A DNA stretch of 64,000 bases from NCBI RefSeq assembly GCF_025602895.1, contig NW_026516210.1:868001-932000 (forward strand), given 5' to 3'. Both the position numbers and the translations under genes were made by a program. Each line of letters opens with the position of its first letter. Position 1 is the stretch's first letter. The DNA comes from Polychytrium aggregatum. Lineage: Eukaryota > Chytridiomycota > Chytridiomycetes > Polychytriales. The notes under the pieces are model-generated. The model did no database searches. It had not been told where the DNA came from and saw nothing but the letters and a program-made list of their open reading frames with translations. Positions 17,465 through 58,920 of this stretch are shown here, one piece after another.

Positions 17465-19307
17465 AGAGGAAGGAGACATCAAGATGTACCGCCCCATCTC
17501 ACTACTACAAGTAACGAGGAAGATATTCGAAAGGATCGTTCACAGCCGCCTCCTGGAAGAAATGGGCCCCATCGACATTGCCCAGGGAGGCTTCCGACAC
17601 AACCGTGGAACCCTCGACCAAGTATTCACACTCGACGTCCTCGTCAAGAAACTCAACAACGAAGGCCACACCCCCTGGGTAGTCTTCATGGACATCAAAG
17701 CAGCCTACGACTCTGTCGACCGTGAGATTCTCTGGCCAAAGCTAGAGCTACGGGGAGTACACATGTCCACCGTCAGAATACTCAGAACACTATTCGACAA
17801 CGTCAAAACCACGGTACTCATCAGCGGAGCCCGTTCCCACACTTACTGGCTCGAAATCGGACTACTACAAGGCTCGGTCATCTCACCAACCCTGTACAGC
17901 CTTTTCGTCGACGACCTCCCCCAGAGGCTCCGGAGAATCGACTCACCAAAGATTGGCGACCTGACCATCAACAATGTCATGTACGCCGACGACATGGCAC
18001 TGGTCGCGACCAATCACGACGACGCACAACGACTACTCGACATCTGTGAGGCACATGCGGCGGAGCATAAGTACTCCTTCGCCCCGACCAAGTGTGAAGT
18101 ACTCACAGCGACACCAAACCCCGAACCACTGACTCTCGGAGGAACCGAGCTCGGCTTCGTCCGAAGTACTTTCAAGTACCTCGGAGTACAGTTCGGGGCC
18201 AAGGGAATTGACGACGAAGCACATGTCACACACCTGAAACACCGCGCCACATTCCAAACGAAGAAATTCAGGATGTACGGCATCTTCAGCAAACAAGTAC
18301 ACCCCGGTGTCATCAACAAAATCTTCAAAACCTTTATCAGACCACGCCTAGAATACGGGCTGGCAATCATGAGACCCAGTGCAAGGGTAATGACTAGTCT
18401 ACGTACATGCATGCTGGACAACCTCCGGGCAGCCTTCAACGTGCGAAAAACCACCTCAGGACACGCCCTCATGACGGTCACGGGGGTCTACTCCATGGCC
18501 GTGAGACGAGAAGTACTCATGATCAAGTGTTACGGCCGCTGGTTCGAAAGGATCAACGACCCTGGGTTCCTGGGCTCCCGAGTACTCAAGTACCTCCTGG
18601 AGCTCCCGGACAGGGACCGCAACAAGTCGATTCTCACACCAGTCCTGAGCAACGACTGGTGGAAAAAGGTGTCAGCACTGAAGATCCGCTTCCCGACTCG
18701 ATCACGTGTTCAGCTGTTCGAGAAAGCACTACCCGGAAGTACCCCACTGAAACGAAGAATGATCACCAAATTCTTCGAGGACGGACGAGACCCCGAAAAA
18801 ATCATGTCAGTAGCAGGGACGTACCGCTGGAAGGGTGACCCCATACTCAGCGGTCGCAAACCGGTAGCCTCCGTGGGACAGGTACGACGGATATTCCTGT
18901 GGAGACTCGGAGTATTCCCCCCCAAGCCAGACAGAATCTGCAAAAAATGTGAAAGAGAGGGCCACCCAGATGTCAAAGTCAACCGCCGACACGTGGCAGA
19001 ATGCATAGACGCCGAAGGACGACTGTGGGAATTTCTTAGAACTCCGCCACCACCAGAAGGATTATCGTATATTGACCAAGCCATCGATGCCCTCCCCAAG
19101 CTCAAGCGACTACCCCAGAAGCCGTTCACGACCGACGAAACAAGACTAGAAGCATGGCGGACCGAGTACCAAAAAGTACTCGACCAGTCCCCACCACTGT
19201 GGAGAGCAGTGCTGGAAACCCTAGGTGCAGTCACCAACCAATGTCTGGGTTGGACTGACGACATAACAGCCCCCGCGAGAGTCGCAAGGGACCATGTGGA
19301 CAACTGA
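17465..19307 (+). CDS. N1 ORF2 C-terminal part: reverse transcriptase
   Basis: About 613 residues of a non-LTR reverse transcriptase, lacking its start. RT motifs are in order: a YRPISLL block at the start, a GGFRHNRGT block, an MDIKAAYDSVDR block, LLQGSVISP, then the catalytic YADD near 17982. After the RT and thumb comes a cysteine/histidine cluster (CKKC...H...C near 18940-19005), typical of the C-terminal finger of APE-type LINEs. No RNase H was recognised. The N-terminal endonuclease of this family is seen in N3. The open frame continues upstream into the LTR only by chance. Confidence 0.88.
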
Positions 19308-19561
19308 TCCCACGGCCACACGGAGAAAAATAGTGTGGGATAGGGGCATGCTCTGACAACCTCGTGCTAAAGGGCGATGAGTACTCGCAAATCTTGACAT
19401 CGCTTGACCTCTCCCTGCCGCTTGAACCCTCACGGGTGATGAGGGGAAGGAACACCCACTACTATCCCAGCTGGGCGCATGGCCAGCAACCAGTGCCAGA
19501 GCCCGAACGGGACGCTAAGGCAAAAGTCTGTCTAATAAACGGCCCATCTGATGAAAAAAAA
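17465..19561 (+). mobile_element. N1: non-LTR retrotransposon, 5'-cut, with 3' end
   Basis: The 3' part of a LINE-type element: reverse transcriptase to the C-terminal finger, a 3' UTR of about 250 bp with AATAAA near 19533, and an end of eight A residues (19554-19561). The 5' part is replaced by the A2 LTR. The 3' end abuts a 14-nt piece of a tRNA-Ala gene and then the 5' end of another copy, N2. Confidence 0.85.
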
Positions 19562-19575
19562 TGAGCTGATTCCCC
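19562..19575 (-). other. 14-nt tRNA-Ala 5' fragment between N1 and N2
   Basis: Reads TGAGCTGATTCCCC on the plus strand, the complement of the first 14 bases of the intact tRNA-Ala at 55762 with one difference. It stands between the A tail of N1 and the 5' end of N2. It may be a target duplication or a relic of the target gene. Confidence 0.7.
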
Positions 19576-19798
19576 CAGGTTTGCCCCGATCTCGTTATCG
19601 AGTGTTCCGCGGACGCACCTTTTGAATTACTACCCTCCCATTGCCTACCAACCTAACCAACCCGGTATCAACCATGCCCCCCGACGACTCGCCTGCCCCC
19701 GAAATGGCCGTAGACGTCCATGACAGTGTCCCTGGACCCTCCAGAGCACCCCCTGAGGCCCAAGCTCAGCCCGAAACAATCGATCTCACGGACCAGCC
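19576..19798 (+). mobile_element. N2: 5' end of a non-LTR retrotransposon
   Basis: A 5' UTR of about 98 bp, then the first 42 codons of ORF1 from ATG at 19674 (MPPDDSPAPEMAVDV...). Nearly the same as the 5' end of N3 at 55540-55760. Cut at 19798 by LTR E. No matching duplication is seen on the other side of E. Confidence 0.85.
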
Positions 19799-39057: not shown

Positions 39058-39128
39058 CGGATCGACGAGGGAAAGAGAGGCGAAAGAAGAAGAAAGGCCG
39101 GGAAGCCAAGAGGGAGCGTTCAAAATGA

Positions 39129-39920
39129 TGTTAGAGTCCGAAGGGGACTCAACGGCAAAAAGAAGAAGTGAGCTCGAAGTGAGCTCAGGGAAGGCAAGGG
39201 TAAAGTCCGAAGTGGACTCGGAGAGGGAGCGAGGAAATTAAAGATCCGTTCAAGATAAGACTTGTCTCGAAATGAGACGTGAGGAACACTCAGAGAATAA
39301 AGTAGAAGGCACTTTATTTAGTCCTATTTTGAACGCTGAGGTTCGACTACACATCGCGGGGGTCAGGCTATTTATAGACAAGTCCGGACTTGGCAGCGAA
39401 GGGCGGCCAAGGGAGGGAAAAGTGGGCGATCGAGCAGGGCGAAGGGGGCGATGCACGAACGAGGGCCGAGAAGGACCACCGAGACAGGCAGAGAACCAAA
39501 GCGAGAGAGGCGCAAGCAAAAGCGAAGCACCAGGCAGGAGAAACGTGCAAAGGCGAAGCAATGTGACTCAACATCCAAGAAGCGGATTGGTCAAGTATAA
39601 GGTTGGGGCAAATGCGTGCGAGATGAACAAGAGATCGGGGCGGTCCGGCAGGTCATGAGTCACCGGTGGGGGGACACATGACCGGCAGCCGAATTGTAAC
39701 CAATCGTAGCGAAGCGCGTGCACAAACAAACCGGCGCGTGCGAAGAAGACAAAGGAAGCGGAGCAGCGCGGGAAAACGGAAGTGCGGAAGGAGCGGAAAA
39801 GACAGGCAAAAGGCGGAAAATCGGAGGGGAACTGCAAAGCTACACACAAACAAACAGAAAGGCAAAAGAACAGCCAAGTGTGCAGTCAAAGTGGGGAACA
39901 GGCAGGAGCTATCCCTAACA
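39129..39920 (-). repeat. B3 5' LTR
   Basis: 792 bp, followed by aaatg (39921-39925). Confidence 0.92.
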
Positions 39921-40044
39921 AAATGGCAGGCAAAAGGCGGAAAATCGGAGGGGAACTGCAAAGCTACACACAAACAAACAGAGGGGCAAAAGAACAGCCC
40001 AGTGTGCAGTCAAAGTGGAGAACAGGCAGGAGCTATCCCTAACA
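39921..40044 (-). repeat. B2 3' LTR, right part
   Basis: Remainder of the LTR split by B3, ending CTAACA before the B2 polypurine tract. The first five bases are the duplicated target. Confidence 0.85.
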
Positions 40045-40056
40045 TCATCCCCTTCC

Positions 40057-42209: not shown

Positions 42210-43000
42210 TGTTAGGGATAGCTTCTGCTTGTTCTCCACTTTGACTGCACACTTGGCTGTTCTTTTGCCTTTCTGTTTGTTTGTGTGTAGCTTTGCAGTT
42301 CCCCTCCAATTTTCCGCCTTTTGCCTGCCATTTCCGCTCCTTCCGCACTTCCGTTTCCCCGCGCTGCTCCGCTTCCTTTGTCTTCTTCGCACGCGCCGGT
42401 TTGTTTGTGCACGCGCCTTGCTGCGATTGGTTGCAATTCGGCTGCCGGTCATGTGTCCCACCACCGGTGACTCATGACCTGCCTGACCGCCCCGATCTCT
42501 TGTTCATCTCGCATGCATTTGCCCCAACCTTATACTTGACCAATCCGCTTCTTGGACGTTGAGTCACATTGCTTCGCCTTTGCACGTTTCTCCTGCCAGG
42601 TGCTTCGCTTTTGCTTGCGCCTCTCTCGCTTTGGTTCTCTGCCTGTCTCGGTGGTCCTTCTCGGCCCTCGTTCGTGCATCGCCCCCTTCGCCCTGCTCGA
42701 TCGCCCACTTTTCCCTCCCTTGGCCGCCCTTCGCTGCCAAGTCCGGACTTGTCTATAAATAGCCTGACCCCCGCGATGTGTAGTCGAACCTCAGCGTTCA
42801 AAATAGGACTAAATAAAGTGCCTTCTACTTTATTCTCTGAGTGTTCCTCACGTCTCATTTCGAGACTAGTCTTATCTTGAACGGATCTTTGCTTCCCTCG
42901 CTCCCTCTCCGAGTCCACTTCGGACTTTACCCTTGCCTTCCCTGAGCTCACTTCGAGCTCACTTCTTCTTTTGCCGTTGAGTCCCCTTCGGACTCTAACA
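42210..43000 (+). repeat. B4 5' LTR (791 bp)
   Basis: TATA box TATAAA at 42754-42759, self-complementary primer segment at 42793-42804, AATAAA at 42812-42817, then four hairpins at 42852-42995 before the TAACA end. Confidence 0.93.
42852..42995 (+). repeat. four short hairpins in B U5
   Basis: Inverted repeats at 42852-42866 (GTCTC/GAGAC), 42912-42926 (AGTCC/GGACT), 42944-42960 (GAGCTC/GAGCTC) and 42979-42995 (GAGTCC/GGACTC), each with a 5-nt loop ending TTC. The same set appears in the other B LTRs. Confidence 0.8.
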
Positions 43001-43002
43001 TC

Positions 43003-43014
43003 ATTTTGAACGCT
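43003..43014 (+). promoter_or_regulatory. B4 putative self-priming site
   Basis: ATTTTGAACGCT, two bases inside the LTR, is the exact complement of AGCGTTCAAAAT at 42793-42804 near the expected RNA 5' end. Tf1 of fission yeast primes in this way. No TGG-type tRNA site is present. Confidence 0.72.
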
Positions 43015-43071
43015 CCCTCTTGGCTTCCCGGCCTTTCTTCTTCTTTCGCCTCTCTTTCCCTCGTCGATCCG

Positions 43072-44029
43072 ATGGCTGAGCCTGCTGCACCCCCTGCAGA
43101 TCTCAATGCGTATCTGGCGCGCATGGAGGAGCGTATGAACGCCCTCATGACCCAGAACGCTGCTCTCCATCGTCAGATCCAAGATCTGCAAGCTCCCGCC
43201 GCCGCTCCCCGCCAGGTCTACCAGGTGAACAAGCCCAAGGAGTTCCTAGGTTCCCGCGACTGAGACGACGGCCTTCCTCGCCCAGTGCCACCTCGTCTTC
43301 CTCGCCGATCCTGCCTTCTTCGCGCCCGAGCGCCAGAAGGTCCTTTATGCCACCTCCTTCCTCCGCGGCGAAGCTTTCAAAGTGGTACGAGGCCGCCTTC
43401 TACTATGGCCAACCGCTTCCCGGCTTCCTTCGCGGATTTTGAAGTTGCCCTCAAGTCGACCTTCGGTGAGGACACGGCCTCCTCGCAAGATAAGGCCTTG
43501 AACGACCTCAAACGCTTGGTCCAGCTCAAGTCCTGCCAAGCCTTCGCCACCCGCTTCGTCCAGCTCGCCGCCCGCGTCCAGACTGACGAACCCACCAAGA
43601 TGCACTTCTTCAAGGAGGGTTTGAAGTCTGAGGTCAAGTTCCACCTCATCGGTCTCCGCCCCGCTCCCGCTTCCTTGCCCTGAGTTGATCAAGGCAGCGG
43701 TCGAGTACGACGATGCCCTCCATCGTCTCAAGGTCTCCTCCCGTTCCCAACCTCCTCCTCCTTCTTCTCGCTCTGCTCCCCATCACCACCATTCTCCCGC
43801 GCATGTTTCTTCTTCCTCCTCTTCTGCACCCACTCCCATGGACCTTGACTCTGTCTCGGTCCGCCCTGCTAAGCTCTCCGACGTCGAGAAAAAGCGACGT
43901 CGTGAGCAGGGTCTCTGCTTGTACTGCGGGGAAAAGTCTTGTCCCGGCAGTCGCGATGTTCAGCAGTGCCCGGTTCTGGTCAAACGGAACTCGGGAAATG
44001 CTCACAGCCGAGCAGCACCTCGCAAGTAA
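43072..44029 (+). pseudogene. gag: B4 gag with four 1-base insertions
   Basis: Same Gag as B1 to B3 but with extra bases near 43261 (gcgactgagac), 43380 (tttcaaagtgg), 43405 (ctactatggcc) and 43680 (ttgccctgag), giving open pieces 43006-43263, 43285-43683 and 43685-44029. All lesions are one-base insertions, which could be sequencing errors. The C-terminal cysteine cluster and frameshift site are unaffected. Confidence 0.87.
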
Positions 44030-44037
44030 GCGAGGTG
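43993..44037 (+). promoter_or_regulatory. B -1 frameshift signal
   Basis: Slippery GGGAAAT (43993-43999; TCG GGA AAT in gag phase), then a perfect 8-bp stem CACCTCGC/GCGAGGTG (44016-44023 and 44030-44037) with the gag stop in its 6-nt loop. The 16-nt spacer is longer than usual; a GCTC/GAGC pairing in between or a pseudoknot may fill it. Confidence 0.7.
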
Positions 44038-47000
44038 GTCTGTTCGGCGATACGAACATCTTCCCCCTCTGACTCGTCACTATCGGACGATAAGCTTCTT
44101 CTTCCGGCCACCCTTGTCGTCATGAGTCTTTCTGGCCCGGTCTCCATCTCCCTTTCTGTCTTTATTGATGATGGATGCACCGCTCTTGCCCTCATTGATC
44201 CTGCCTTTGCGGATCTCCATAAACTCTCTCTTATCCCTCTTTCTACTCCCTACTCCGTTTCCCTTGCTGATGGTTCTTCGGCCGGTTTCATTCGTTTCCA
44301 AACCGTTCCTGTGACGTTGACCATTGGTTCCCACACCGAGTCGATTTCTTTTCTTGTGACTCGACTCTCCACCACTCCCATCACTCTTGGTCTTCCCTGG
44401 ATGCGCTTGCATAATCCAGTTGTCAATTGGAAGTCCCTCTCCCTTTCGTTCTCCGATCCCTCTTGCCTTGCTGATGGACACATCCTCGCGGATGTCTCTG
44501 CTTCCTCCTTGGACACTTCGTCCCCTTCCGGCTATTCGCCTCCCCCTTCGGGCACTTCGCCTTTGACTCCTCCCTCCGGTCCTTCCCTTACACCGGTTCC
44601 CTCCTTTGGCACTTCGCCTTCCCTTTCTTCCCGCCTTGACTCTGCTTCGCTTTCTGAAGAGCCAACGGCTTTATCTTCGCCCGACATTGAGCTCGTTAAT
44701 GCGGCGAGTCTTCTCCGTCTTGCACGGGAAGACAAGCTCGACATTTTCGCTGCCCAAATGGATATCCGTCCTCCTTCGCCGGAGACGTATCCTACGGTGT
44801 CGATAAGGTCCGTGCTCACGACGAAGGTGTATGCCGAGTCTGGCACCCCTGTTGACTCTCGAGGTGTCCCGCTCAAATACAATGAGTTTGGCGACGTTTT
44901 CAGCCTCAAGTCTGACCCTCCTTCTTCCTTGCCTCCTCACCGTCCGTATGACTTGTCTATTGAGTTTGTACGGACCGAGGATGGAAAGGAACCTCGTTTG
45001 CCAAAGCCGGGGAAAGTCTATCCTTTGTCCCCGGCCGAGGAATCTGCTCTTTCGGAGTATCTGACCAACGCCCTCGCACGTGGTTGGATCTCCAAATCCT
45101 CTTCTCCCGTTGGTGCTCCCTGCTTCTTCGTGAAGAAGCCCAATGGTGGTCTTCGCCTTTGCGTCGACTACCGGGGCCTCAATGCCATCACGAAGAAGAA
45201 CCGCTACCCTCTTCCCCTCTTCCAGGATCTTCTGGATAAACTTTCTTCTGCCCGCGTCTTCTCACACCTTGACCTTCCTGATGCTTACCACTTGGTTCGT
45301 GTCAAGAAGGGCGATGAGTGGAAGACTGCTTTTGTTTGCAAATCTGGCTCTTACGAGTACAATGTTATCCCCTTTGGTCTTTCGAATGCCCCCGCTGCTT
45401 TTCAGTTTTTTATGAACGACATCTTCTCGGACCTCCTTGGTGTCTGTGTTGTCATTTATCTTGACGACATCCTGATCTTCTCAAAAGATCCCCTGGAGCA
45501 TGAGGAGCATGTTAAGCTTGTTCTTTCTCGCCTTCGTGAACACTCTCTTAAGGTCAATCCGGCCAAGTGTTCTTTTGACCTTTCTGAAGTTGACTTTCTC
45601 GGCATGATCATTTCTGCCGATGGCATTAAAATGGACCCTGCCAAGGTCGAGGCCGTTTCCCTTTGGCCTGTTCCCTCTTCTGCTCGCGACATCCAAGTTT
45701 TTATTGGTTTCGCAAACTTTTACCGCCGCTTCGTCAAGGACTTTTCCGCACTTGCTCGTCCTTTGACTTCACTCACCACCAAATCCTCCACCTTCTCTTG
45801 GTCTCCCGAGGCCCAAGAGGCTTTTGATTCTCTTAAACGTTCATTCACTTCCGCACCTATTCTTCGTTACTTTGATTTCTCCAAACCCGCTGTCATCGAG
45901 CCCGATGCTTCTGACTTTGCTCTGGGTGCCGTCCTTTCCCAGTTTGACCCTGACGGCGCTCTTCACCCCGTTGCTTTTCACTCTCGGCAATTCCGTCCCG
46001 CCGAGGTGAATTATGACACCCACGACAAAGAGCTCCTTGCTATTGTCGATTCCTTTACTGCCTGGCGTCATTACTTGATGGCTGCCGACCCCGATCATCC
46101 CACTCTTGTTTTCTCTGATCACCAGAACCTCACCCGGTTCACTTCCGCTTCCCAACTTTCTCGCCGCCAGTTCCGGTGGGCCCAATTCCTTTCTGATTTT
46201 GCTTTTCGCATTTACCACCGCCCTGGTCGCCTCAACACCAAAGCCGATGCTCTCAGTCGCCGTTCTGACTTTGAGATAAAGCCTGGTGACTCCCTCCACT
46301 CCACCAACTTCCTTCAGCTGTTCGAGTCTATTTCTCTCGACAGCATCACCGTTATCGGCTCGAACCCCGATTTTCTTTCCGAGATTCGAGCTGCCACCCT
46401 TTCTTGTTCCCTTCTTTCTGACTTCAACGCCAAACGTCTTGATGGCGATTACTCCTTCCGTGACGGTCTCCTTTACTTTAAAGACCTGATCGTTGTCCCT
46501 TCCCCCGAGCTCCAGCTCAAAGTGTTTGAGCAACGTCACTGCTCCGCTGCCGCTGGTCACTTTGGTCTTGCCAAGACCGTTGAGCTCATCTCCCGGGACT
46601 TTCACTGGCCCCGGCTTCGTAAGTCTGTGCGTCGCTTCATTGCTAATTGTGAAGCGTGCCAGCGAGCCAAGCCGTCCCGTCACTCCCCTTATGGTTTACT
46701 TCACCCTCTCCCCGTTCCTTCCGAACGTTGGTGGGACCTGTCGATGGACTTCATCACGGATCTCCCACCTTCGAACGGCTTTGACTCCATCTTCGTGGTT
46801 AAGGACCGCCTGTCCAAACAAGCACACTTTGTGCCCACCACGAAGACGGTTACAGGCGAGCAAACCGCCGAACTCTTCCTCTCCCACATCTTCCGCTTGC
46901 ATGGTTGTCCCCGGTCTATTGTTTCGGACCGAGGAACTCAGTTTACTTCGGCCTTCTGGAGGCGCTTCAATGAGCTTCTGAAGACGAAGATTTCCCTTTC

Positions 47001-47814
47001 TTCTGCCTTCCACCCCGAGACCGACGGTTCGACCGAGGTTCTCAACCAGGTCATCGAGCAGTATTTGCGTATCCATTGCAATTACCTGCAAGACGACTGG
47101 ACCCTTCACCTTCCCCTTGCCGAGTTCACTTACAACAACTCGGAAAACACCTCCACTGGCATGACTCCCTTCTTTGCAGTCCATGGCCATCACCCCATTT
47201 TTGATCCCTCCATCATCCGTGATCCTTCTGTTGTGCCCTCTGCCGAAGAACGTGTCGACCGACTTCAGACCGTTCTCGAGGATCTCAAGGCCAACCTCCG
47301 GGTTGCCCAAGAGTCCTACACTTTGCAGGCCAACAAATCCCGTCTCCCCACTCCCGACATCTCCGTTGGCGACCTCGTTTTTCTTGATCGTCGCCACATC
47401 CGCACCCTTCGTCCCTCCAACAAGCTTGATCAGAAAAAGCTTGGCCCCTTTAAAGTTCTTCGCCGCATCAACCCCGTTGCCTTTGAACTTAAACTCCCTT
47501 CCACACTCAAAGTCCACCCCGTCTTTCATGTATCCCTCCTTGAACCCCGAACGAAGGACATTGTTCCCGAGTTCACCCAACCCGAACCTCCACCCATTCT
47601 TGTTGACTCCCAGGAAGAGTTTGAGGTCGAGACTGTTCTCGATTCTCGGCTCTTCCGTGGTCGCTTACAGTACTTGGTTCAGTGGAAGGGCTATTCCGAG
47701 ACTGACCGGTCTTGGGAGCCCGCTGCCAATGTTTCCCACGCCACTGATCTTGTTGCTGACTTCCACCTTCGCTATCCCTCAAAGCCGAAGGCGACGCCCG
47801 GAGTTCGTCGCTAA
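43993..47814 (+). CDS. pol: B4 pol polyprotein with chromodomain
   Basis: Intact pol (about 1,273 residues after the shift; open from 43939). A protease-like domain near the start has FIDDGCTALALID in place of the usual DSGA/DTGA, so the catalytic motif is DDG. Then the reverse transcriptase (YLDDILIF near 45457), RNase H (EPDASDFALGAVL, with P where T is usual), integrase finger (H...H...CEAC) and DDE core (LSMDF, VSDRGTQF, FHPETDGSTEV), and a chromodomain (EEFEVETVLDSR...YLVQWKGY). The stop is 12 bp before the 3' LTR. Confidence 0.93.
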   Translation, partial: GKCSQPSSTSQVSEVVCSAIRTSSPSDSSLSDDKLLLPATLVVMSLSGPVSISLSVFIDDGCTALALIDPAFADLHKLSLIPLSTPYSVSLADGSSAGFIRFQTVPVTLTIGSHTESISFLVTRLSTTPITLGLPWMRLHNPVVNWKSLSLSFSDPSCLADGHILADVSASSLDTSSPSGYSPPPSGTSPLTPPSGPSLTPVPSFGTSPSLSSRLDSASLSEEPTALSSPDIELVNAASLLRLAREDKLDIFAAQMDIRPPSPETYPTVSIRSVLTTKVYAESGTPVDSRGVPLKYNEFGDVFSLKSDPPSSLPPHRPYDLSIEFVRTEDGKEPRLPKPGKVYPLSPAEESALSEYLTNALARGWISKSSSPVGAPCFFVKKPNGGLRLCVDYRGLNAITKKNRYPLPLFQDLLDKLSSARVFSHLDLPDAYHLVRVKKGDEWKTAFVCKSGSYEYNVIPFGLSNAPAAFQFFMNDIFSDLLGVCVVIYLDDILIFSKDPLEHEEHVKLVLSRLREHSLKVNPAKCSFDLSEVDFLGMIISADGIKMDPAKVEAVSLWPVPSSARDIQVFIGFANFYRRFVKDFSALARPLTSLTTKSSTFSWSPEAQEAFDSLKRSFTSAPILRYFDFSKPAVIEPDASDFALGAVLSQFDPDGALHPVAFHSRQFRPAEVNYDTHDKELLAIVDSFTAWRHYLMAADPDHPTLVFSDHQNLTRFTSASQLSRRQFRWAQFLSDFAFRIYHRPGRLNTKADALSRRSDFEIKPGDSLHSTNFLQLFESISLDSITVIGSNPDFLSEIRAATLSCSLLSDFNAKRLDGDYSFRDGLLYFKDLIVVPSPELQLKVFEQRHCSAAAGHFGLAKTVELISRDFHWPRLRKSVRRFIANCEACQRAKPSRHSPYGLLHPLPVPSERWWDLSMDFITDLPPSNGFDSIFVVKDRLSKQAHFVPTTKTVTGEQTAELFLSHIFRLHGCPRSIVSDRGTQFTSAFWRRFNELLKTKISLSSAFHPETDGSTEVLNQVIEQYLRIHCNYLQDDWTLHLPLAEFTYNNSENTSTGMTPFFAVHGHHPIFDPSIIRDPSVVPSAEERVDRLQTVLEDLKANLRVAQESYTLQANKSRLPTPDISVGDLVFLDRRHIRTLRPSNKLDQKKLGPFKVLRRINPVAFELKLPSTLKVHPVFHVSLLEPRTKDIVPEFTQPEPPPILVDSQEEFEVETVLDSRLFRGRLQYLVQWKGYSETDRSWEPAANVSHATDLVADFHLRYPSKPKATPGVRR

Positions 47815-47826
47815 GGAAGGGGATGA

Positions 47827-48618
47827 TGTTAGGGATAGCTTCTGCTTGTTCTCCACTTTGACTGCACACTTGGCTGTTCTTTTGCCTTTCTGTTTGTTTG
47901 TGTGTAGCTTTGCAGTTCCCCTCCAATTTTCCGCCTTTTGCCTGCCATTTCCGCTCCTTCCGCACTTCCGTTTCCCCGCGCTGCTCCGCTTCCTTTGTCT
48001 TCTTCGCACGCGCCGGTTTGTTTGTGCACGCGCCTTGCTGCGATTGGTTGCAATTCGGCTGCCGGTCATGTGTCCCACCACCGGTGACTCATGACCTGCC
48101 TGACCGCCCCGATCTCTTGTTCATCTCGCATGCATTTGCCCCAACCTTATACTTGACCAATCCGCTTCTTGGACGTTGAGTCACATTGCTTCGCCTTTGC
48201 ACGTTTCTCCTGCCAGGTGCTTCGCTTTTGCTTGCGCCTCCCTCGCTTTGGTTCTCTGCCTGTCTCGGTGGTCCTTCTCGGCCCTCGTTCGTGCATCGCC
48301 CCCTTCGCCCTGCTCGATCGCCCACTTTTCCCTCCCTTGGCCGCCCTTCGCTGCCAAGTCCGGACTTGTCTATAAATAGCCTGACCCCCGCGATGTGTAG
48401 TCGAACCTCAGCGTTCAAAATAGGACTAAATAAAGTGCCTTCTACTTTATTCTCTGAGTGTTCCTCACGTCTCATTTCGAGACAAGTCTTATCTTGAACG
48501 GATCTTTGCTTCCCTCGCTCCCTCTCCGAGTCCACTTCGGACTTTACCCTTGCCTTTCCCTGAGCTCACTTCGAGCTCACTTCTTCTTTTGCCGTTGAGT
48601 CCCCTTCGGACTCTAACA
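47827..48618 (+). repeat. B4 3' LTR (792 bp)
   Basis: TG...CA ends, followed by cgacc (48619-48623). Confidence 0.93.
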
Positions 48619-50278
48619 CGACCTTGGCAAGGTCCATTTTGATGCCATCGGCAGAAATGATCATGCCGAGAAAATCAACTTCAGAAAGGTCAAAAGAACA
48701 CTTGGCCGGATTGACCTTAAGGGAGTGTTCACGAAGGCGAGAAAGAACAAGCTTAACATGCTCCTCATGCTCCTGGGGATCTTTTGAGAAGATCAGGATG
48801 TCGTCAAGATAAATGACAACACAGACACCAAGGAGGTCCGAGAAGATGTCGTTCATAAAAAACTGAAAAGCAGCGGGGGCATTCGAAAGACCAAAGGGGA
48901 TAACGTTGTACTCGTAAGAGTCAGATTTGCAAACAAAAGCAGTCTTCCACTCATCGCCCTTCTTGACACGAACCAAGTGGTAAGCATCCGGAAGGTCGAG
49001 GTGTGAGAAGACGCGGGCAGAAGAAAGTTTATCCAGAAGATCCTGGAAGAGGGGAAGAGGGTAGCGATTCTTCTTCGTGATGGCATTGAGGCCCCGGTAG
49101 TCGACGCAAAGGCGAAGACCACCATTGGGCTTCTTCACGAAGAAGCAGGGAGCACCAACGGGAGAAGAGGATTTGGAGATCCAACCACGTGCGAGGGCGT
49201 TGGTCAGATACTCCGAAAGAGCAGATTCCTCGGCCGGGGACAAAGGATAGACTTTCCCCGGCTTTGGCAAACGAGGTTCCTTTCCATCCTCGGTCCGTAC
49301 AAACTCAATAGACAAGTCATACGGACGGTGAGGAGGCAAGGAAGAAGGAGGGTCAGACTTGAGGCTGAAAACGTCGCCAAACTCATTGTATTTGAGTGGG
49401 ACACCTCGAGAGTCAACAGGGGTGCCAGACTCGGCATACACCTTCGTCGTGAGCACGGACCTTATCGACACCGTAGGATACGTCTCCGGCGAAGGAGGAC
49501 GGATATCCATTTGGGCAGCGAAAATGTCGAGCTTGTCTTCCCGTGCAAGACGGAGAAGACTCGCCGCATTAACGAGCTCAATGTCGGGCGAAGATAAAGC
49601 CGTTGGCTCTTCAGAAAGCGAAGCAGAGTCAAGGCGGGAAGAAAGGGAAGGCGAAGTGCCAAAGGAGGGAACCGGTGTAAGGGAAGGACCGGAGGGAGGA
49701 AGAGTCAAAGGCGAAGTGCCCGAAGGGGGAGGCGAAGTGCCAGAAGTGGACGAAGTGTCCAAGGAAGAAGCAGAGACATCCGCGAGGATGTGTCCATCAG
49801 CAAGGCAAGAGGGATCGGAGAATGAAAGGGAGAGGGACTTCCAATTGACAACTGGATTATGCAAGCGCATCCAGGGAAGACCAAGAGTGATGGGAGTGGT
49901 GGAGAGTCGAGTCACAAGAAAAGAAATCGACTCGGTGTGTGAACCAATGGTCAGAGTCACAGGAACGGTTTGGAAACGAATGAAACCGGCCGAAGAACCA
50001 TCAGCAAGGGAAACGGAGTAAGGAGTAGAGAGAGGGATAAGAGAGAGTTTATGGAGATCCGCAAAGGCAGGATCAATGAGGGCAAGAGCGGTGCATCCAT
50101 CATCAATAAAGACAGAAAGGGAGATGGAGACCGGGCCAGAAAGACTCATGACGATAAGAGTGGCCGGAAGAAGAAGCTTATCGTCCGATAATGACGAGTC
50201 AGAGGGGGAAGATGTTCGTATCGCCGAACAGACCACCTCGCTTACTTGCGAGGTGCTGCTCGGCTGTGGGCATTTCCC
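48619..50278 (-). pseudogene. pol: B2 pol, 5' half
   Basis: Protease and reverse transcriptase of B pol in one open frame from the frameshift site GGGAAAT (50272-50278) to the B4 insertion. YLDDILIF is intact. Cut after the RT connection. Confidence 0.87.
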
Positions 50279-51195
50279 GAGTTCCGTTTGACCAGAACCG
50301 GGCACTGCTGAACATCGCGACTGCCGGGACAAGACTTTTCCCCGCAGTACAAGCAGAGACCCTGCTCACGACGTCGCTTTTTCTCGACGTCGGAGAGCTT
50401 AGCAGGGCGGACCGAGACAGAGTCAAGGTCCATGGGAGTGGGTGCAGAAGAGGAGGAAGAAGAAACATGCGCGGGAGAATGGTGGTGATGGGGAGCAGAG
50501 CGAGAAGAAGGAGGGGGAGGTTGGGAACGGGAGGAGACCTTGAGACGATGAAGGGCATCGTCGTACTCGACCGCTGCCTTGATCAACTCAGGCAAGGAAG
50601 CGGGAGCGGGGCGGAGACCGATGAGGTGGAACTTGACTTCCGACTTCAGACCCTCCTTGAAGAAGTGCATCTTCGTGGGTTCATCGGTCTGGACTGGGGC
50701 GGCAAGCTGGACGAAGCGGGTGGCAAAGGCTTGGCAGGACTTAAGTTGAACCAAGCGCTTGAGGTCGTTCAAGGCCTTATCTTGCGAGGAGGCCGTGTCC
50801 TCACCGAAGGTCGACTTGAGGGCAACTTCGAAATCAGCGAAGGAGGCAGGGAAGCGGTTGGCCATGTAGAAGGCGGCCTCGTACCACTTGAAGGCTTCGC
50901 CACGGAGGAAGGAGGTTGCGTACAGGACCTTCTGGCGCTCAGGCGCGAAGAAGGCGGGATCGGCGAGGAAGACGAGGTGGCACTGGGCGAGGAATGCCGT
51001 CGTCTCGTCGCGGGAACCGAGGAACTCCTTGGGCTTGTTGACCTGGTAGACCTGGCGGGGAGCGGCGGCGGGAGCTTGCAGATCTTGGATTTGACGATGG
51101 AGAGCAGCGTTCTGGGTCATGAGGGCGTTCATACGCTCCTCCATGCGCGCCAGATACGCATTCAAATCTGCAGGGGGTGCAGCAGGCTCAGCCAT
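50242..51195 (-). CDS. gag: B2 gag
   Basis: 317-residue Gag, open, with the same features as B1 gag. Differences include A-P for A-R near 50695. Confidence 0.87.
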   Translation of the reverse strand: MAEPAAPPADLNAYLARMEERMNALMTQNAALHRQIQDLQAPAAAPRQVYQVNKPKEFLGSRDETTAFLAQCHLVFLADPAFFAPERQKVLYATSFLRGEAFKWYEAAFYMANRFPASFADFEVALKSTFGEDTASSQDKALNDLKRLVQLKSCQAFATRFVQLAAPVQTDEPTKMHFFKEGLKSEVKFHLIGLRPAPASLPELIKAAVEYDDALHRLKVSSRSQPPPPSSRSAPHHHHSPAHVSSSSSSAPTPMDLDSVSVRPAKLSDVEKKRRREQGLCLYCGEKSCPGSRDVQQCPVLVKRNSGNAHSRAAPRK

Positions 51196-51266
51196 CGGAT
51201 CGACGAGGGAAAGAGAGGCGAAAGAAGAAGAAAGGCCGGAAAGCCAAGAGGTAGCGTTCAAAATGA

Positions 51267-52058
51267 TGTTAGAGTCCGAGGGGGACTCAACGGCAAAAGA
51301 AGAAGGTGAGCTCGAAGTGGGCTCTGGGAAGGCAAGGGTAAAGTCCGAAGTGGACTCGGAGAGGGAGCGAGGGAAGCAAAGATCCGTTCAAGATAAGACT
51401 AGTCTCGAAATAAGACGTGAGGAACACTCAGAGAATAAAGTAGAGGGCACCTTATTTAGTCCTATTTTGAACGCTGAGGTTCGACTACACATCGCGGGGG
51501 TCAGGCTATTTATAGACAAGTCCGGACTTGGCAGCGAAGGGCGGCCAAGGGAGGGAAAAGTGGGCGATCGAGCAGGGCGAAGGGGGCGATGCACGAACGA
51601 GGGCCGAGAAGGACCACCGAGACAGGCAGAGAACCAAAGCGAGAGAGGCGCAAGCAAAAGCGAAGCACCTGGCAGGAGAAACGTGCAAAGGCGAAGCAAT
51701 GTGACTCAACGTCCAAGAAGCGGATTGGTCAAGTATAAGGTTGGGGCAAATGCATGCGAGATGAACAAGAGATCGGGGCGGTCAGGCAGGTCATGAGTCA
51801 CCGGTGGGGGGACACATGACCGGCAGCCGAATTGCAACCAATCGCAGCAAGGCGCGTGCACAAACAAACCGGCGCGTGCGAAGAAGACAAAGGAAGCGGA
51901 GCAGCGCGGGAAAACGGAAGTGCGGAATGGGCGGAAATGGCAGGCAAAAGGCGGAAAATCGGAGGGGAACTGCAAGGCTACACACAAACAAACAGAAAGG
52001 CAAAAGAACAGCCAAGTGTGCAGTCAAGGTGGAGAACAAGCAGGAGCTATCCCTAACA
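51267..52058 (-). repeat. B2 5' LTR (792 bp)
   Basis: B LTR with a few private changes (gggggactc, gtgggctct). Its right edge cuts ORF2 of N3. Confidence 0.9.
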
Positions 52059-53520
52059 ACTTGATGGCCTCTTGTACTTGTGCGGGGGTGATGTCTCCCA
52101 CGCCCACTCGACTGAATGCGACATGTTGCCTGGGCGCGACTACTCGGTCTTCTTGGACCCCATGTCGGCTTGAAATGTTTCCGAAGTGAGTTCTGTAGGT
52201 TTCCAAGCTTTCTGCGTCGTTCGGGAGTACTGAGCGGTTGAAGTAACCACTCTTGATCTTCTCACGCTTGCTGATTTCCTTCATGAGCTCGGTGTCAGGC
52301 TTGGTCGGAAGTGATTCGGCCCAGTTGTTGTAGAATTCTCGCTTGCGACGTTTGACAAGTTTGCGGAGGGTAATGTTCTGGAGATTGTACTCTGCCGCGC
52401 TTTCGACTTGTAGTCTCGAGCCGTGGGGCGCTCTGGAAGCGAGTAGGTACGCTGCGTTCCGGCGCCTCTTGATCTCGGTCATCTCTGGGGTCCAGAAGCC
52501 ATTCGGGGGGACGGCTCCGTACTTCTTGCGCTTCCCGATGACGATGTTGGCAATCGAGTTGATGTGGCCTTTGATGATCGACCATCCGTTTTCTATGAGG
52601 GTCTCGGCGTCGGGTGGTCCGAGTAGTCCTTCCCGCCGTGGGAATCGTTGTTCGAGTTGGGTGAGCTGCTCGATTACTACCGGGTGTACTTGCTCGAAGG
52701 CCTCGAGGTACTCTTCGTGGACCCGTGGGAATTCCAATTGCTTGGTGCGCCAGACATGTATCGTGGGCTGTCGGGGTTGCCTTTCGGCGTCCCACTCGAG
52801 CTCCATCGTTACTAGTCGGTGGTCCGAGTTGCAGGTGGTGTTTGTTTGTACTTTGACGGTCTTTTGCATCCGTCGGAGGGCAATCGATGCGAAGAATAAG
52901 TCGATTACTGACGTCCCTTCCACATCGCAGTAGTGTGTCCAGTGGTCCCCGCGAGGGTTGGACGAATCGACGAAGGTGAGTAGTCCCTCGGTGGCGGCCG
53001 AGAGGAGGGTTGGTCTTCGGTCGTTGAAACGAGAGTCCCTGGCCATTTGGCCGAGTCTGGTGTTGAAGTCACCCATGATCACAGATGGGATCGGGGTGCC
53101 TTGCTGGGTAGTCTGTCTCTTGATGATGGACAGGCCCTCCTTGACTTTCTCACGGAGTAGTGGTTTGAGGTAGAATGAACCGAAGGTGATTCCTCTGAAC
53201 TTGAACCAGATACTGGTGTGGTGCGGGCCTACATAGAAGTTGCTAAAGTCCTCCATGTTGGTTCTTCGTGGGTTCCGGATCAGGGCGATCCCACCGGTAC
53301 CTCGGCTGCGGCCGTTTGGGTCCGGCTCGCGTGTCTCGAAGACTATGAGGTTCTTGAGTGGTCCAATTGAGCTATGAGGTTTCAGCCATGTTTCTTGAAC
53401 TGTGATGAATTCCAGTTTCTGTTTGTCGAGTACTTCAATGATTTCGTGGTATGAGGTTTCAAGGCCGTTCACGTTGAGAGTCGCGAACCTGATTGTCGGT
53501 ACGTTGGGTACCTGATTCAT
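52059..53520 (-). CDS. N3 ORF2 N-terminal part: APE endonuclease
   Basis: About 487 residues of a LINE ORF2. The first 240 residues form an apurinic-type endonuclease: FATLNVNG at the start, an E in VQETWL, the GDFNTRLG motif, VIDLFF and the terminal SDHRLV. These residues bind the metal and nick the target for priming. A linker follows, and the frame ends in the B2 LTR before RT motifs. The ATG overlaps the ORF1 stop as ATGA at 53517-53520. Confidence 0.88.
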
Positions 53521-55662
53521 TGATGGGATTGGGGTTCTGTGCGTCCGCCCATCGCGGGGCGGCCTGTTCTTCCTTGGGCGATCTCACGGGCCCTGGAGGT
53601 GATTTGCTCGGCAATGTCGGGGTCGTCGAGCTTGCGCTGGTAGACTGTGGCCGTGAGAAGATCCCTGGACTCGGCACATATCTTGGCTGCGCGTTCAATG
53701 TAATTCTTGATTTGCATCTTCTTGGTGTTTCTTTCCTCTTCGGTGAAGTTCTTGACATCCACGCCTGGGATCTCTGTGAACTTCCAGCTTTTGATGAGCT
53801 TGAGGAACTGTTCTTTGTAACTGGCGTCCCTGAGGATGAATTCGCTTGTGTGTCGGTCGACGAAGCTAATGTTCAGGATTTGGTTCGTCGGGAAGCCTGC
53901 CAGCTTGAACGCCTGTCTGACAGCCTTGTAGCTTCCTCTCGGGATTCCCCTGACGTAGACCCATGTGGCACTGTCGATCTTGGTCTTCATGGGGCCTTCT
54001 TCGATTGCGGCCTTGGCTCGGATCATTCTGAAGGGGGTGGCGACCTTGGGAACGATCCATTTGCCGTCGTCTGGGTTTCGGCCTCTGAGCACCGCTCCAA
54101 TGGCACTGATTCTCTTCTCAGTATCGTTTTCCAGGGTGACCTTCTCCAGGGCCTCGAGCCGGTTGGCGGTGACGGTCCTGGCGCTGGCGTGTGTAACCTT
54201 GCGGGCACCACGCGCGGCGGCGGCAGCAAAGGTGTCCGGTGGGGGAGCGCGTTTCTCCTCAGACGCGTGATTGGTGTAGCACACGAGTGCCTCTACCGCC
54301 TCAGTGGCGATGGCCTTGAGCTTGTTGACTCCTTCAGGGCTGGAGAGGTCAAGCTGCTGGATCAGCTGCTTCATTTCTTGTGCTCTCTTGGCGCTTGTCA
54401 GTGGCTGGCGCCGCGTCTTGTGGCTACGGCCATGTCAAGACTGGACAACGGGGCAAGCAGGGAAGTGCGCAAGAGTCCTAATGCAAGACTCGAACGTAGG
54501 GAGAGGAGCGGGGACTGGACTGGGACACAGAGTGTCAAGTGTGAAGCCAAAGTTTTATTCTAGATCCAAGGCTTAGGATACTAAAAATACAAAGTGGCAA
54601 GACGAAGGCAAAAGACAGAGGCTGGTCGGAGGGCTATTTATGCGAGCGCCAAGGATCGACGTTGCAGAGCGAGGGGGCAGGAGCGAAGCAGCGGCGGGGA
54701 GGGCGAAGCAGCGAGCGAAGCAGGTGGCGGCCGTGACTCGGGATCCGTGAGTCAGCGGGCGTCAGTGGCGGCGGCATGGCGGCGCCAAGGCGTCAGGCGG
54801 CGTCGAGGCGGCGTCGTGGGCGTAACCCATGACCAACAGCAAGGAAGCGGGAACGGAACACAGGCAGCGCGCGTGCTGGCGGTAAGACAACAAGGCAGCA
54901 CAGCGCGGGAAACAAACAAACAGAAGGAAGGGAAAGCACTAAGACAGGCAAACAGAAAGGAAAGGGCAAGGGTAAAGGAAGGAAGAGGGCAAAGGCAGAG
55001 GGTGTTCATGACAGGCCATCACAGACTCGGGCCCCGACCGTGTTGGCGTCGCCGAGGGACACCCGTTGGTTGAAGGCTTGAATGTTGTCCGCAGTGCGGG
55101 TCATTAGTCCCCAAAAGGCGAGGACGGGGAAGCGCTGGCCGCACTCCTTAATCTTGGCCGGGTTGTCAGGGCTCATCATGTTGTTCTTGCACACGATGTC
55201 GTGGTCGTCTTGGTCGAGGTGCCATGAGGCCTGCTTCCTGTCTGCACAGCGTGAGCAGCGGACCCTGTGGCCTCGGAGTGCAAAGACCAAGCGGAATCGA
55301 CGGTAAGTGATCTCGTCAAAGGTGAGTGACATGTAGTCGGCCTCACAGGCTTCGCCCCTTTCTTCCTTGGCTGCAATTTCGATGGCCCAGTTCTTCTCGG
55401 CCTCGACATCGGGAGGGTTGGGGTACATTTCGGAGTCTCCGTAGAGCTCCTCGATCGTTGTTTCGATCGGCTTCTGGCCACTGGGGACTATGGGCTGGGA
55501 GACTTCTTGGCCATCGCCTCTGCGTTTCTTGGGCGTGGGCTGGTCCGTGAGATCGATTGTTTCGGGCTGAGTTTGGGCCTCAGGGGGTGCTCTGGAGGGT
55601 CCAGGGACACTGTCATGGACGTCTACGGCCATTTCGGGGGCAGGCGAGTCGTCGGGGGGCAT
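53517..55662 (-). pseudogene. N3 ORF1, split by LTR F
   Basis: ORF1 starts at ATG 55662 (MPPDDSPAPEMAVDV) and ends at 53517. Removing F (54433-55013) and one ggcca leaves a single frame of 519 residues, so F is its only lesion. It has an acidic, proline-rich N-terminus, a cysteine cluster (VRCSRC...C) near residue 135, an alanine-rich middle and a basic C-terminal half (ATWVYVRGIPRGSYKAVRQA) that may be a nucleic-acid-binding fold. I do not recognise a named family. Confidence 0.8.
54433..55013 (-). repeat. F: solo LTR (581 bp)
   Basis: TGTCAT...TTGACA ends in minus sense, with duplication ggcca at 54428-54432 and 55014-55018. CATAAATAGC (near 54637-54646) and AATAAA (near 54555) fit a minus-strand promoter and polyA signal. 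No internal sequence, so this is a solo LTR left by LTR-LTR recombination. Confidence 0.85.
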
Positions 55663-55761
55663 GGTTGATACCGGGTTGGTTAGGTTGGGAGGCAATGGGA
55701 GGGTAGTAATTCAAAAAGTGCGTCCGCGGAACACTCGATAACGAGATCGGGGCAAACCTGG

Positions 55762-55834
55762 GGGGAATTAGCTCAGATGGTAGAGCGCTCGCTTAGCATG
55801 CGAGAGGCACGGGGATCGATACCCCGATTCTCCA
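55762..55834 (+). tRNA. tRNA-Ala (AGC)
   Basis: 73 nt with a complete cloverleaf: acceptor GGGGAAT/ATTCTCC with one G-T pair, D arm GCTC/GAGC, anticodon stem CTCGC/GCGAG, anticodon AGC (55795-55797), T arm CGGGG/CCCCG with an A54 loop as in many eukaryotic tRNA-Ala. It begins one or two bases from the 5' end of N3. Confidence 0.95.
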
Positions 55835-55842
55835 CTTTCACT

Positions 55843-55915
55843 GCCCGGCTAGCTCAATCGGTAGAGCGTGAGACTCTTAATCTCAAGGTTGTGGGTTCGA
55901 CCCCCACGTTGGGCG
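55843..55915 (+). tRNA. tRNA-Lys (CTT)
   Basis: 73 nt; acceptor GCCCGGC/GTTGGGC, anticodon CTT (55876-55878), T loop TTCGA. Eight bases after tRNA-Ala, with no T run between. Confidence 0.95.
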
Positions 55916-55919
55916 ATTG

Positions 55920-55993
55920 GCTCCTATGGCGCAATTGGCTAGCGCGTTCGGCTGTTAACCGGAAGGTTGGTGGTTCGAGCCCACCTAGGAGCG
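55920..55993 (+). tRNA. tRNA-Asn (GTT)
   Basis: 74 nt; acceptor GCTCCTA/TAGGAGC, anticodon GTT (55954-55956), T arm GGTGG/CCACC. Four bases after tRNA-Lys. Confidence 0.95.
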
Positions 55994-55994
55994 C

Positions 55995-57594: not shown

Positions 57595-58920
57595 TCATTG
57601 GGCGACTGTTGGGCTGTCATTCTCGGTAAATGTCACCAGGGGTTCGAAAATATTGTTCTCAACGTCGTAACCAAGTAGCTCGCCGCGTTCAAAGTCAAAA
57701 TACCAGCCGTTGATTGTGATCTCGTTCTTCATGAGGCGTTCTTTGACCCAAGGATAGGACATGAGATTTTCCAACGACAGGAGAATGCTTGCGTGTTCTG
57801 TCGTTAATAGGTTCAGTTAAATTATGACCAGAAACACCTCAGCGGACATGATTTCGGCACAACCAAAATTAGTCGCATAATTTTGCTGCGAAAATATGTC
57901 GGCTTTGTGAAACCAGCATTTCTATTCATCAAACTTCAGCTCCAAACGAACGCTCATGACTATGTTCCCCATCCCTCCGTTTGGGCGACTCAGTCGCGCA
58001 TTTGGAGGCAGCACCTTCGTGCATGATCTCGTCGGGTGATTCGAACAATTGGTTTATCACTTACCGCATGCACGTTGTTGAACCTCTGGTGCTGCGTCCG
58101 GAAAATTCCTTGGAGCGAAATCAGTAGTCAGTGTCGTGTGCTACCTCCTGCCAAGGAGCCACAGCCGGCATTCGGTGGAGCATTGATCATTTGGTTGACT
58201 CCCCGGACCACGATCAAGTATCGACATTGTTGGCGTGGCATCCAGCCGGCATGCTCAACTTATGACCACCCTTTTTGGCATTAAAGGTGCACTTAAACGC
58301 GTATTGACGAGACCCGCAGGCAACTTACTTTAGGGTTTTGTCCTTTGCGAGCTGCACAATACTCATCCACTGGCCAACGAACTGATATTCGTCTTTCGAG
58401 ACTCCCTGCATAAGTGCTTTTATGCCACCGCACTGAGTATGTCCCATAACGATGATGTTCTCCACCTTCAGACCTTTGACGGCAAACTCAACCGCGGCAG
58501 ATACGCCATGAAATCCGCTAACGCCGTCGGGATGGTAAGGGGCAACCAGATTGGCCACGTTGCGGACCACAAACATATCCCCCGGATCGCATTCGGTGAT
58601 TATCGCTGGATCGACTCGTGAGTCACAGCAGCCAATGAGGAGTGTCTGGTCGAGATCAATATGGCCGCGTTAGATTCGTTTGACAAAGAACCTTCATACC
58701 CCGCGTAAACTATTGACCGCACTGACGCATCCCTGGTCGCAAACTGTTATATCGCGCTCAAATCGACCCTTCTCTTCATCTAAAATCCGGGCGGCCCCTT
58801 TTGGCGATGCGTCGACATTACCTTTGGACTCTGGGCCTGTCGAAGATGATCAAAAAGCTCAATGTTATCGCAAAAGTAGTTTTTGTGAAATCTCTTGAAT
58901 CCAGAGAGAAACTTATTCAT
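57595..58920 (-). CDS. beta-class carbonic anhydrase, four exons
   Basis: Converts CO2 and water to bicarbonate and a proton. Exons: 58920-58822, 58645-58329, 58108-58065, 57797-57595, giving 220 residues (663 nt with stop). All introns are GT-AG (176, 220 and 267 bp), the first with a CTAAC branch site near its end. The zinc site is Cys39 (GCCDSR), His102 and Cys105 (MGHTQCGG), with the Asp41-Arg43 dyad. Further conserved parts are DMFVVRNVANLV, QQRACEHASI and the C-terminal NGWYFDFERGEL. Length is typical. The start is the ATG 33 codons before the first intron. No targeting signal is evident, so a cytosolic location is likely. Confidence 0.93.

What the first reader, a model, noticed from the sequence alone, without database searches (positions are those of the whole stretch)
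55753..55834. Non-LTR element N abuts a tRNA-Ala gene at its 5' end in both observed cases
N3 (minus strand) starts one or two bases from the 5' end of the intact tRNA-Ala (55762). N2, 36 kb away, has the same 5' end, and what lies just before it (19562-19575) is the complement of the first 14 bases of tRNA-Ala with one change. That 14-mer follows the A tail of N1, giving N1 - tRNA piece - N2. The simplest reading is a site-directed element that enters tRNA-Ala 5' ends, head to head, leaving a duplication of about 14-16 bp; a second insertion at the same site made the N1/N2 tandem. Dictyostelium TRE elements show that LINE-type elements can target tRNA genes, but entry into the gene edge with the tRNA kept intact on one side would be distinctive.
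Basis: partly seen in the sequence, partly recalled or inferred. Interest (0 to 1): 0.88.

Follow-up and report, generated by a model that had tools for sequence, protein, structure and literature searches.

The report
Jumping gene that targets tRNA starts
This eukaryotic genome carries a family of copy-and-paste jumping genes that insert at one exact spot at the start of transfer RNA genes and copy the first 14 to 16 letters as they enter, so the tRNA gene stays whole.

Summary
N is a non-LTR retrotransposon (APE endonuclease plus reverse transcriptase). Its 5' end lies 0-2 bases from base 1 of tRNA-Ala(AGC), head to head, at 17 of the 26 such genes found. The five full N 3' ends found are each followed by the antisense of tRNA-Ala bases 1-14 and then another N. 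A sister family, called M here (ORF2 61% identical), makes the mechanism plain. Of 23 M 3' ends, 21 are followed by the exact antisense of bases 1-16 of tRNA-Gly, tRNA-Glu or tRNA-Ala(CGC). In 19 a second copy of that 16-mer lies at the other end; fourteen of these span 5458-5467 bp. At six junctions read, M's 5' end touches tRNA base 1. Eight full-length M copies are 99.7-100% identical over 1.4 kb but have different outer flanks, so they are recent separate insertions. Most likely the element nicks the tRNA sense strand in the A box, primes reverse transcription there and duplicates bases 1-14/16. The gene is thus regenerated and can be hit again, which builds stacks. For N itself, spread by duplication remains possible. 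tRNA-targeting LINEs are known (Dictyostelium TRE/NLTR, NeSL-type elements), so this is a new variant.

The parts
52059..55759 (-). N3: 5' part of non-LTR retrotransposon N (ORF1, start of ORF2 with APE endonuclease), cut off near 52059 by an LTR-like repeat
   Evidence: sequence, ORFs, Pfam PF03372/PF14529 on 52024-53520, alignment to the other copies
54433..55013 (-). LTR-like insert of 581 bp (TGTC...GACA) inside N3 with 5-bp repeat TGGCC, later than N3
   Evidence: read by eye; in L046, L048, L053 and L058 N has only 67 bp between the two flanking parts
55760..55761 (.). two extra bases between the N 5' end and tRNA base 1 (0-2 at the 17 loci)
55762..55835 (+). tRNA-Ala(AGC), intact; bases 1-14 are the duplicated target
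   Evidence: ARAGORN
55842..55916 (+). tRNA-Lys(CTT), 6 bp behind tRNA-Ala
   Evidence: ARAGORN
55920..55994 (+). tRNA-Asn(GTT), 3 bp behind tRNA-Lys
   Evidence: ARAGORN
17465..19561 (+). N1: 3' part of N (reverse transcriptase, Cys/His region seen by eye, 3' UTR, A tail); 5' part cut off by an LTR-like repeat
   Evidence: Pfam PF00078 on 17367-19307; 99.6-99.9% identical to L046, L053, L058; repeat D11 in front
19562..19575 (+). target-site duplicate: antisense of tRNA-Ala bases 1-14 with one change
   Evidence: exact in 3 of 5 equivalent places
19577..19798 (+). N2: first ~220 bp of the next N copy, then interrupted

Best explanation
N and its sister M are site-specific APE-type non-LTR retrotransposons that use the 5' edge of tRNA genes as target. 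Shown by sequence: the element lies head to head with the tRNA. Its 5' end meets tRNA base 1 (M) or lies 0-2 bases from it (N). Its 3' tail is followed by a second copy of tRNA bases 1-14 (N) or 1-16 (M). Full-length M copies compared are nearly identical and have different outer flanks. Stacks occur. Inferred: the endonuclease nicks the tRNA sense strand inside the A box (after base 14 or 16). The freed 3' end (...CTCA or ...CAGT) primes reverse transcription from the 3' tail of the element RNA. For M the tail ATTG(ACTG)n can pair with CAGT, and its variable length fits slippage there. The other strand is cut at the base -1/+1 boundary. Filling in duplicates bases 1-14/16, so the gene next to the element's 5' end is complete and can be targeted again. 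New copies would then enter beside the tRNA and push older ones outward.
For: N 5' end at 17 of 26 tRNA-Ala(AGC) genes. Five of five full N 3' ends found are followed by the 14-mer and another N (capped list). M: 21 of 23 3' ends followed within 4-11 bases by an exact tRNA 16-mer; 19 of 23 with the partner copy, 14 of them with 5458-5467 bp between. The four exact occurrences of GGGGATTTAGCTCAGT in the genome are two such pairs. Six 5' junctions read: M touches base 1 in tRNA-Gly(GCC) twice, tRNA-Glu(CTC) twice, tRNA-Ala(CGC) once by ARAGORN and once by the same first 23 bases. Eight full-length M copies are 99.7-100% identical over 1.4 kb with different outer flanks. Copies of 88 bp have the duplication on both sides (C367). 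ORF2 is open at full length in 3 N and 13 M-type copies; M is 61% identical to N. In C257 an M is followed by the 16-mer and then a degenerate relative with an ORF1 remnant: young inside, old outside.
Against: For N no outer flank (14-mer followed by unique DNA) was seen; the arrays are cut by LTR-like repeats or contig ends. All 17 N-bearing clusters share an identical Ala-Lys spacer, so part of their number may be duplication or gene conversion. N has an off-target truncated piece on two contigs. Four of 23 M ends lack the full pair: C212 and C37 have no exact outer 16-mer (C37 has the tRNA-side one at 5488; its M end lies 30 bases from the contig start), and two ends on C266 have no partner, where the element would run past the contig ends. 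Several M loci are duplicates of each other (C18, C40 and C266 share one outer flank). The two 88-bp copies share one truncation point. An older M-like type at C367/C356 shows only a decayed 16-mer. Nick position, priming and activity are inferred; nothing was measured.
Confidence: 0.93

Rival explanations
1. Segmental duplication: one N-tRNA-Ala-Lys(-Asn) unit was copied or spread by gene conversion, and N does not seek tRNA genes.
For: All 17 N-bearing clusters share the Ala-Lys spacer CTTTCACT, while the 8 N-less tRNA-Ala genes that have a Lys gene behind them show four other spacers. Several loci share downstream flanks (classes A, B, C, E).
Against: Six downstream flank classes by eye. 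N sequence types do not follow the classes: L041 (class B) equals L045 (class A), while two class A copies differ at 6 and two class C copies at 5 of 219 aligned columns. The sister family M shows duplications on both sides and different outer flanks beside nearly identical bodies, which duplication does not give.
Confidence: 0.1
2. The tRNA is part of the element (a tRNA-derived head serving as promoter), not a host target.
For: A tRNA gene lies at the 5' end of each of the 17 N and 6 M copies whose tRNA junction was read.
Against: The same M 5' end is joined to three different isotypes. Copies of 88 bp also lie beside the tRNA. The outer 16-mer matches that at the tRNA side in all 19 pairs. 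56 of 94 occurrences of the three 16-mers are linked to no M 3' end found (that each is a tRNA gene was not checked), and 9 of 26 tRNA-Ala(AGC) genes lack N itself.
Confidence: 0.03
3. Entry guided by Pol III factors as in TRE5-A, with the exact position only a by-product.
For: TRE5-A is also head to head with tRNA genes and its ORF1 protein interacts with TFIIIB subunits (PMC5911963, passages read).
Against: The duplication is bases 1-16 in all 19 M pairs with no spread; TRE5 sits within a 40-54 bp window. The three target genes share CAGT at bases 13-16, which points to recognition or pairing at the sequence itself. Help from Pol III factors in addition is not excluded.
Confidence: 0.25

Closest known systems
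Dictyostelium purpureum NLTR-A (PMC5006619, PMC5911963; passages read)
   Same: Non-LTR element with APE endonuclease at the 5' edge of tRNA genes (2-6 bp upstream of base 1)
   Different: Carries an RNase H domain; N has no RNase H match. Here the element touches base 1 (M) or lies 0-2 bases away (N) and the duplication is tRNA bases 1-14/16; the passages read give no target-site duplication for NLTR-A, so it may prove closer than it looks
Dictyostelium TRE5-A / TRE5 (PMC5911963, passages read)
   Same: APE and RT in ORF2, two ORFs, opposite orientation to the tRNA gene; a zinc finger follows the RT there, and N has a Cys/His motif by eye
   Different: TRE5 lies 40-54 bp upstream; here the A box itself is the inferred cut site and the gene is regenerated by the duplication
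NeSL-1_TV (tRNA-Pro), LIN15_SM (tRNA-Arg), LIN25_SM (tRNA-Glu) (PMC4640811, passages read; its figure S6 not seen)
   Same: Non-LTR retrotransposons specific for tRNA genes
   Different: Elements related to NeSL, with a restriction-like endonuclease (RLE); N is APE type. Their exact site was not seen here
Dada-t DNA transposons (PMC3706591, passages read)
   Same: Insert at fixed points in tRNA genes; for three Perkinsus families the putative duplication TAGCTC lies in the A box
   Different: DDE DNA transposons with 6-7 bp duplications, located inside the tRNA gene
R1/R2 rDNA elements (recalled, except that PMC3706591 passages name them as 28S-specific)
   Same: Site-specific target-primed reverse transcription in a multicopy RNA gene, 5' truncation
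   Different: They interrupt the rRNA unit; here the target gene is left whole

Membership tests
Site-specific non-LTR retrotransposon (general kind) | Endonuclease and reverse transcriptase in one ORF | tested here: met
   PF03372/PF14529 and PF00078 on the 1159-aa ORF2 of N
Site-specific non-LTR retrotransposon (general kind) | Same nucleotide of a multicopy target, with target-site duplication | tested here: met
   19 of 23 M ends paired with identical 16-mers; N 14-mer at 5 of 5 full 3' ends found; exception: the N piece in L014/L015
Site-specific non-LTR retrotransposon (general kind) | 5'-truncated copies and simple 3' tail | tested here: met
   88-bp M copies, 77-81-bp N piece with A tail
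TRE5 | Insertion 40-54 bp upstream of the tRNA gene | tested here: not met
   0-2 bp for N at 17 loci, 0 bp for M at 6 junctions
TRE5 | Opposite orientation to the tRNA gene | tested here: met
TRE5 | Reverse transcriptase in the L1/TRE clade | not tested
   no reference set of clades was at hand; no tree was built
NLTR-A | RNase H domain after the reverse transcriptase | tested here: not met
   no RNase H family at E<=0.1 in the 1159-aa ORF2
NLTR-A | Insertion 2-6 bp upstream of tRNA base 1 | tested here: not met
   0-2 bp for N (2 bp at one of 17 loci), 0 bp for M; close, and the way of measuring may differ
NeSL-type tRNA elements | Restriction-like endonuclease instead of APE | tested here: not met
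   APE-type endonuclease found

The most novel reading that the evidence does not exclude
The elements and the tRNA genes have become a self-repairing pair. The RNA tail is tuned to pair with the A box of the chosen isotypes (M: ACTG against CAGT; N: CCATCTGA against TCAGATGG). The duplication restores the gene.
Probability: 0.2. Interest if true: 0.82.

Novelty: new variant of a known kind. Interest (0 to 1): 0.62.

Why it matters
It shows a harmless-entry strategy: by nicking inside a gene but duplicating exactly the part it would have cut off, a LINE can target an essential gene and leave it intact and reusable. One family uses the same point in the A box of three tRNA isotypes, so whether target choice rests on the protein, on pairing of the RNA tail or on Pol III factors becomes directly testable. 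It may also interest those who look for safe insertion sites.

Tried and rejected
Rejected: that the M copies on C18, C37, C40 and C114 belong to a tRNA (GGATGGG...) 6.4-6.5 kb away in the tRNA scan, which scored only 63 of 1357 candidates. The 16-mer search showed the true partner, tRNA-Gly, 5476 bp away at C18, C40 and C114. Rejected: that M's 5' end copies a native tRNA flank. The one similar stretch (L035) proved to be a decayed relative in tandem; the other 11 of 12 stretches compared were not similar (p 0.116 or more), and at least three of those 12 are element rather than native DNA. Left open: N's first ~50 bp match the stretch before N-less tRNA-Ala genes (L062, L064/L066, L065/L067). 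This may be a captured host promoter or a relic of older N-type insertions. For the relic: L064 has a degenerate 14-mer (12 bases) 207 bp out, p 0.006 in 1000 shuffles, the best of five flanks tested; the other four gave p 0.23 to 1.0. L059-L061 hold an old N relative. A ~30-bp likeness at the start of the stretches beyond the tRNA-Glu 16-mer in L016, L031 and L032 was first taken for a native promoter motif; in L016 and L032 it starts short composite copies with M's 3' end, in L031 its nature is open. Led nowhere: a protein search with the Fanzor-like ORF scored 7995 candidates without a hit. The host was not identified: of the 120 listed RT relatives (510 found) two carry species names, Umbelopsis isabellina and Lichtheimia ramosa, which does not place the host. 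Literature: searches (two of them returned nothing) of an open-licence library showed in their listings no LINE whose duplication is tRNA bases 1-16; passages of PMC7175516 and PMC10886601 gave none either. Subscription papers are not covered, and Kojima and Fujiwara 2004 was seen only as a citation.

Full report
What was checked. The window lies in a 64.7-Mb eukaryotic assembly of 418 contigs, at C397:868001-932000. tRNA-Ala(AGC), tRNA-Lys and tRNA-Asn stand at 55762-55994 with spacers of 6 and 3 bp. N3 runs away from tRNA-Ala on the minus strand from 55759. N1 ends with an A tail at 19561, the 14-mer TGAGCTGATTCCCC follows at 19562-19575, and N2 starts at 19577.

What N is. The cleanest copies lie outside the window: in L046 an ORF2 of 1159 aa is open with an APE-type endonuclease (PF03372, PF14529) and a reverse transcriptase (PF00078), and no RNase H at E<=0.1. 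A Cys/His motif near its end is seen by eye only. ORF1 lies upstream. Of 120 listed RT relatives two bear species names, Umbelopsis isabellina (38% identical) and Lichtheimia ramosa (36%). Among solved structures the RT matches R2 and LINE-1 proteins.

N across the genome. A search with tRNA-Ala gave 26 matches, all scored, one of them only 96% identical. All 26 were inspected. Seventeen have N's 5' end 0-2 bases away, always head to head; nine do not, though three of these (L059-L061) carry an old N relative. The DNA behind the tRNA cluster falls into six classes by eye (A: window, L045, L052; B: L040, L041, L049, L050, L055, L056; C: L042, L043, L047, L048; D: L044; E: L039, L054; F: L057). 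N types and flank classes do not run together. Yet all 17 share the Ala-Lys spacer CTTTCACT; the 8 N-less tRNA-Ala genes with a Lys gene behind them have four others. Some spread by duplication or conversion is therefore likely, and the number of separate N insertions is not known. Exact 14-mers in the genome number 28: 25 at tRNA-Ala genes and 3 in these tandems. Two similar contigs hold the last 77-81 bp of N with A tail between copies of a 15-mer that is no tRNA start (L014, L015).

The sister family M. N's 3' end also matched, at about 84%, many other elements whose 3' ends run into the antisense of other tRNA starts. A 24-base pattern from their 3' end, with up to 3 mismatches, finds 23 places and none for the reversed control. 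Within 4-11 bases behind it stands the exact antisense of GCATGGTTGGTCCAGT, TCCGCATTGGTCCAGT or GGGGATTTAGCTCAGT in 21 of 23. In 19 of 23 the same 16-mer in the same orientation lies at the other end: 14 times with 5458-5467 bp between, and five times with 88, 88, 357, 366 and 650 bp between. The four that fail are C212, C37 (tRNA-side 16-mer present, outer one not exact, 30 bases from the contig start) and two ends on C266, which would run past the contig ends. Short stretches fetched at six far ends show M's 5' end touching base 1 of tRNA-Gly(GCC) (L084, L088), tRNA-Glu(CTC) (L085, L086) and tRNA-Ala(CGC) (L087 by ARAGORN; L068 by the same first 23 bases); L087 lacks two of M's terminal bases. 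GGGGATTTAGCTCAGT occurs four times in the genome, as two such pairs.

Independence and age. The last 1.4 kb of eight full-length M copies (L020, L030, L031, L032, L035, L036, L037, L038) are 99.7-100% identical, while the DNA beyond their outer 16-mers differs. Two of these flanks, L031 and L032, share about 30 bp at the start and then diverge, and the L035 flank is an old relative. At 13 loci where the outer flank was read (L016, L020, L030-L038, L073, L074) there are ten different flanks; C18, C40 and both C266 ends share one, so those are duplicates. M's ORF2 is 61% identical to N's over residues 4-1144 and open at full length in 13 copies. This points to a recently active family.

How it works (inferred). 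The duplication is tRNA bases 1-16 for M and 1-14 for N, so the first cut is placed on the tRNA sense strand inside the A box and the second at the base -1/+1 boundary. The freed 3' end CAGT can pair with the ACTG of M's tail. The tail between the 3' core and the 16-mer is 4 bases in 11, 8 in 9 and 11 in 1 of the 21 places, as expected from slippage on that pairing. N's tail holds CCATCTGA, the antisense of tRNA-Ala bases 12-19; this match was noticed after the fact and has no test behind it. Because the duplication rebuilds the gene, the site can be used again: N-N tandems, M over a short composite copy at C346, and M over a decayed relative at C257. In C257 the young copy is next to the tRNA and the old one outside, which fits re-entry at the tRNA and not at the outer duplicate; this is one case. 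The two 88-bp copies at C367 have the same truncation point and may be one insertion duplicated.

A side question left open. The first ~50 bp of N are 85% alike over 41 columns to the stretch before N-less tRNA-Ala L062, 81% over 43 to L064/L066, and 68% over 94 to L065/L067. Either N took over the tRNA's own upstream region or these are relics whose first 50 bp were kept. For M no such likeness to native flanks was found.

Known relatives. TRE5 (40-54 bp upstream, opposite orientation, APE-RT-ZF) and NLTR-A (2-6 bp upstream) of dictyostelids are the nearest in behaviour (PMC5911963 and PMC5006619, passages read). Elements related to NeSL (NeSL-1_TV; LIN15_SM and LIN25_SM of planaria) are tRNA-gene specific but carry another endonuclease (PMC4640811, passages read). 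Dada DNA transposons use the A box too, with 6-7 bp duplications (PMC3706591, passages read). What is different here is the exact, gene-restoring duplication of the tRNA's own first bases by an APE-type LINE, shared across isotypes by one family.

None changes the odds.

Noticed in passing
L044:1274-4174: Long open frame downstream of the tRNA cluster with a Cas12f1-like TNB domain (PF07282), probably a Fanzor-type nuclease; a coding stretch that looks alike by eye lies just before the off-target N piece in L014/L015.
   Followed up: partly
window:55762-55994; L016; L031: tRNA genes stand in tight clusters (Ala-Lys-Asn, Glu-Thr, Val-Ile) with spacers of 3-7 bp, which suggests joint transcription.
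   Followed up: no
L040/L041 (C333) and L049/L050 (C15): Two tRNA-Ala-Lys-Asn clusters about 14 kb apart face each other, each with N on its outer side; C333 (14.6 kb) consists of little more than this unit.
   Followed up: no
L032:1588-1937 and L016: Short composite elements (about 350 bp in L032) with a different 5' part and M's last ~164 bp, lying beyond the tRNA-Glu 16-mer: possibly non-autonomous passengers of M.
   Followed up: partly
window:1-27203 and 32835-52058: Dense LTR-retrotransposon-like repeats (by eye, no domain test), several pairs 99-100% alike over 1-5 kb in both orientations, interrupting N copies.
   Followed up: no
window:61131-63177 and 58325-58576: Coding stretches that look like MCM9 and a beta carbonic anhydrase, apparently with introns (names from memory, no tool test).
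   Followed up: no
L059, L060, L061: N-less tRNA-Ala genes carry an old N relative at the same place (70-73% over N 182-277).
   Followed up: partly
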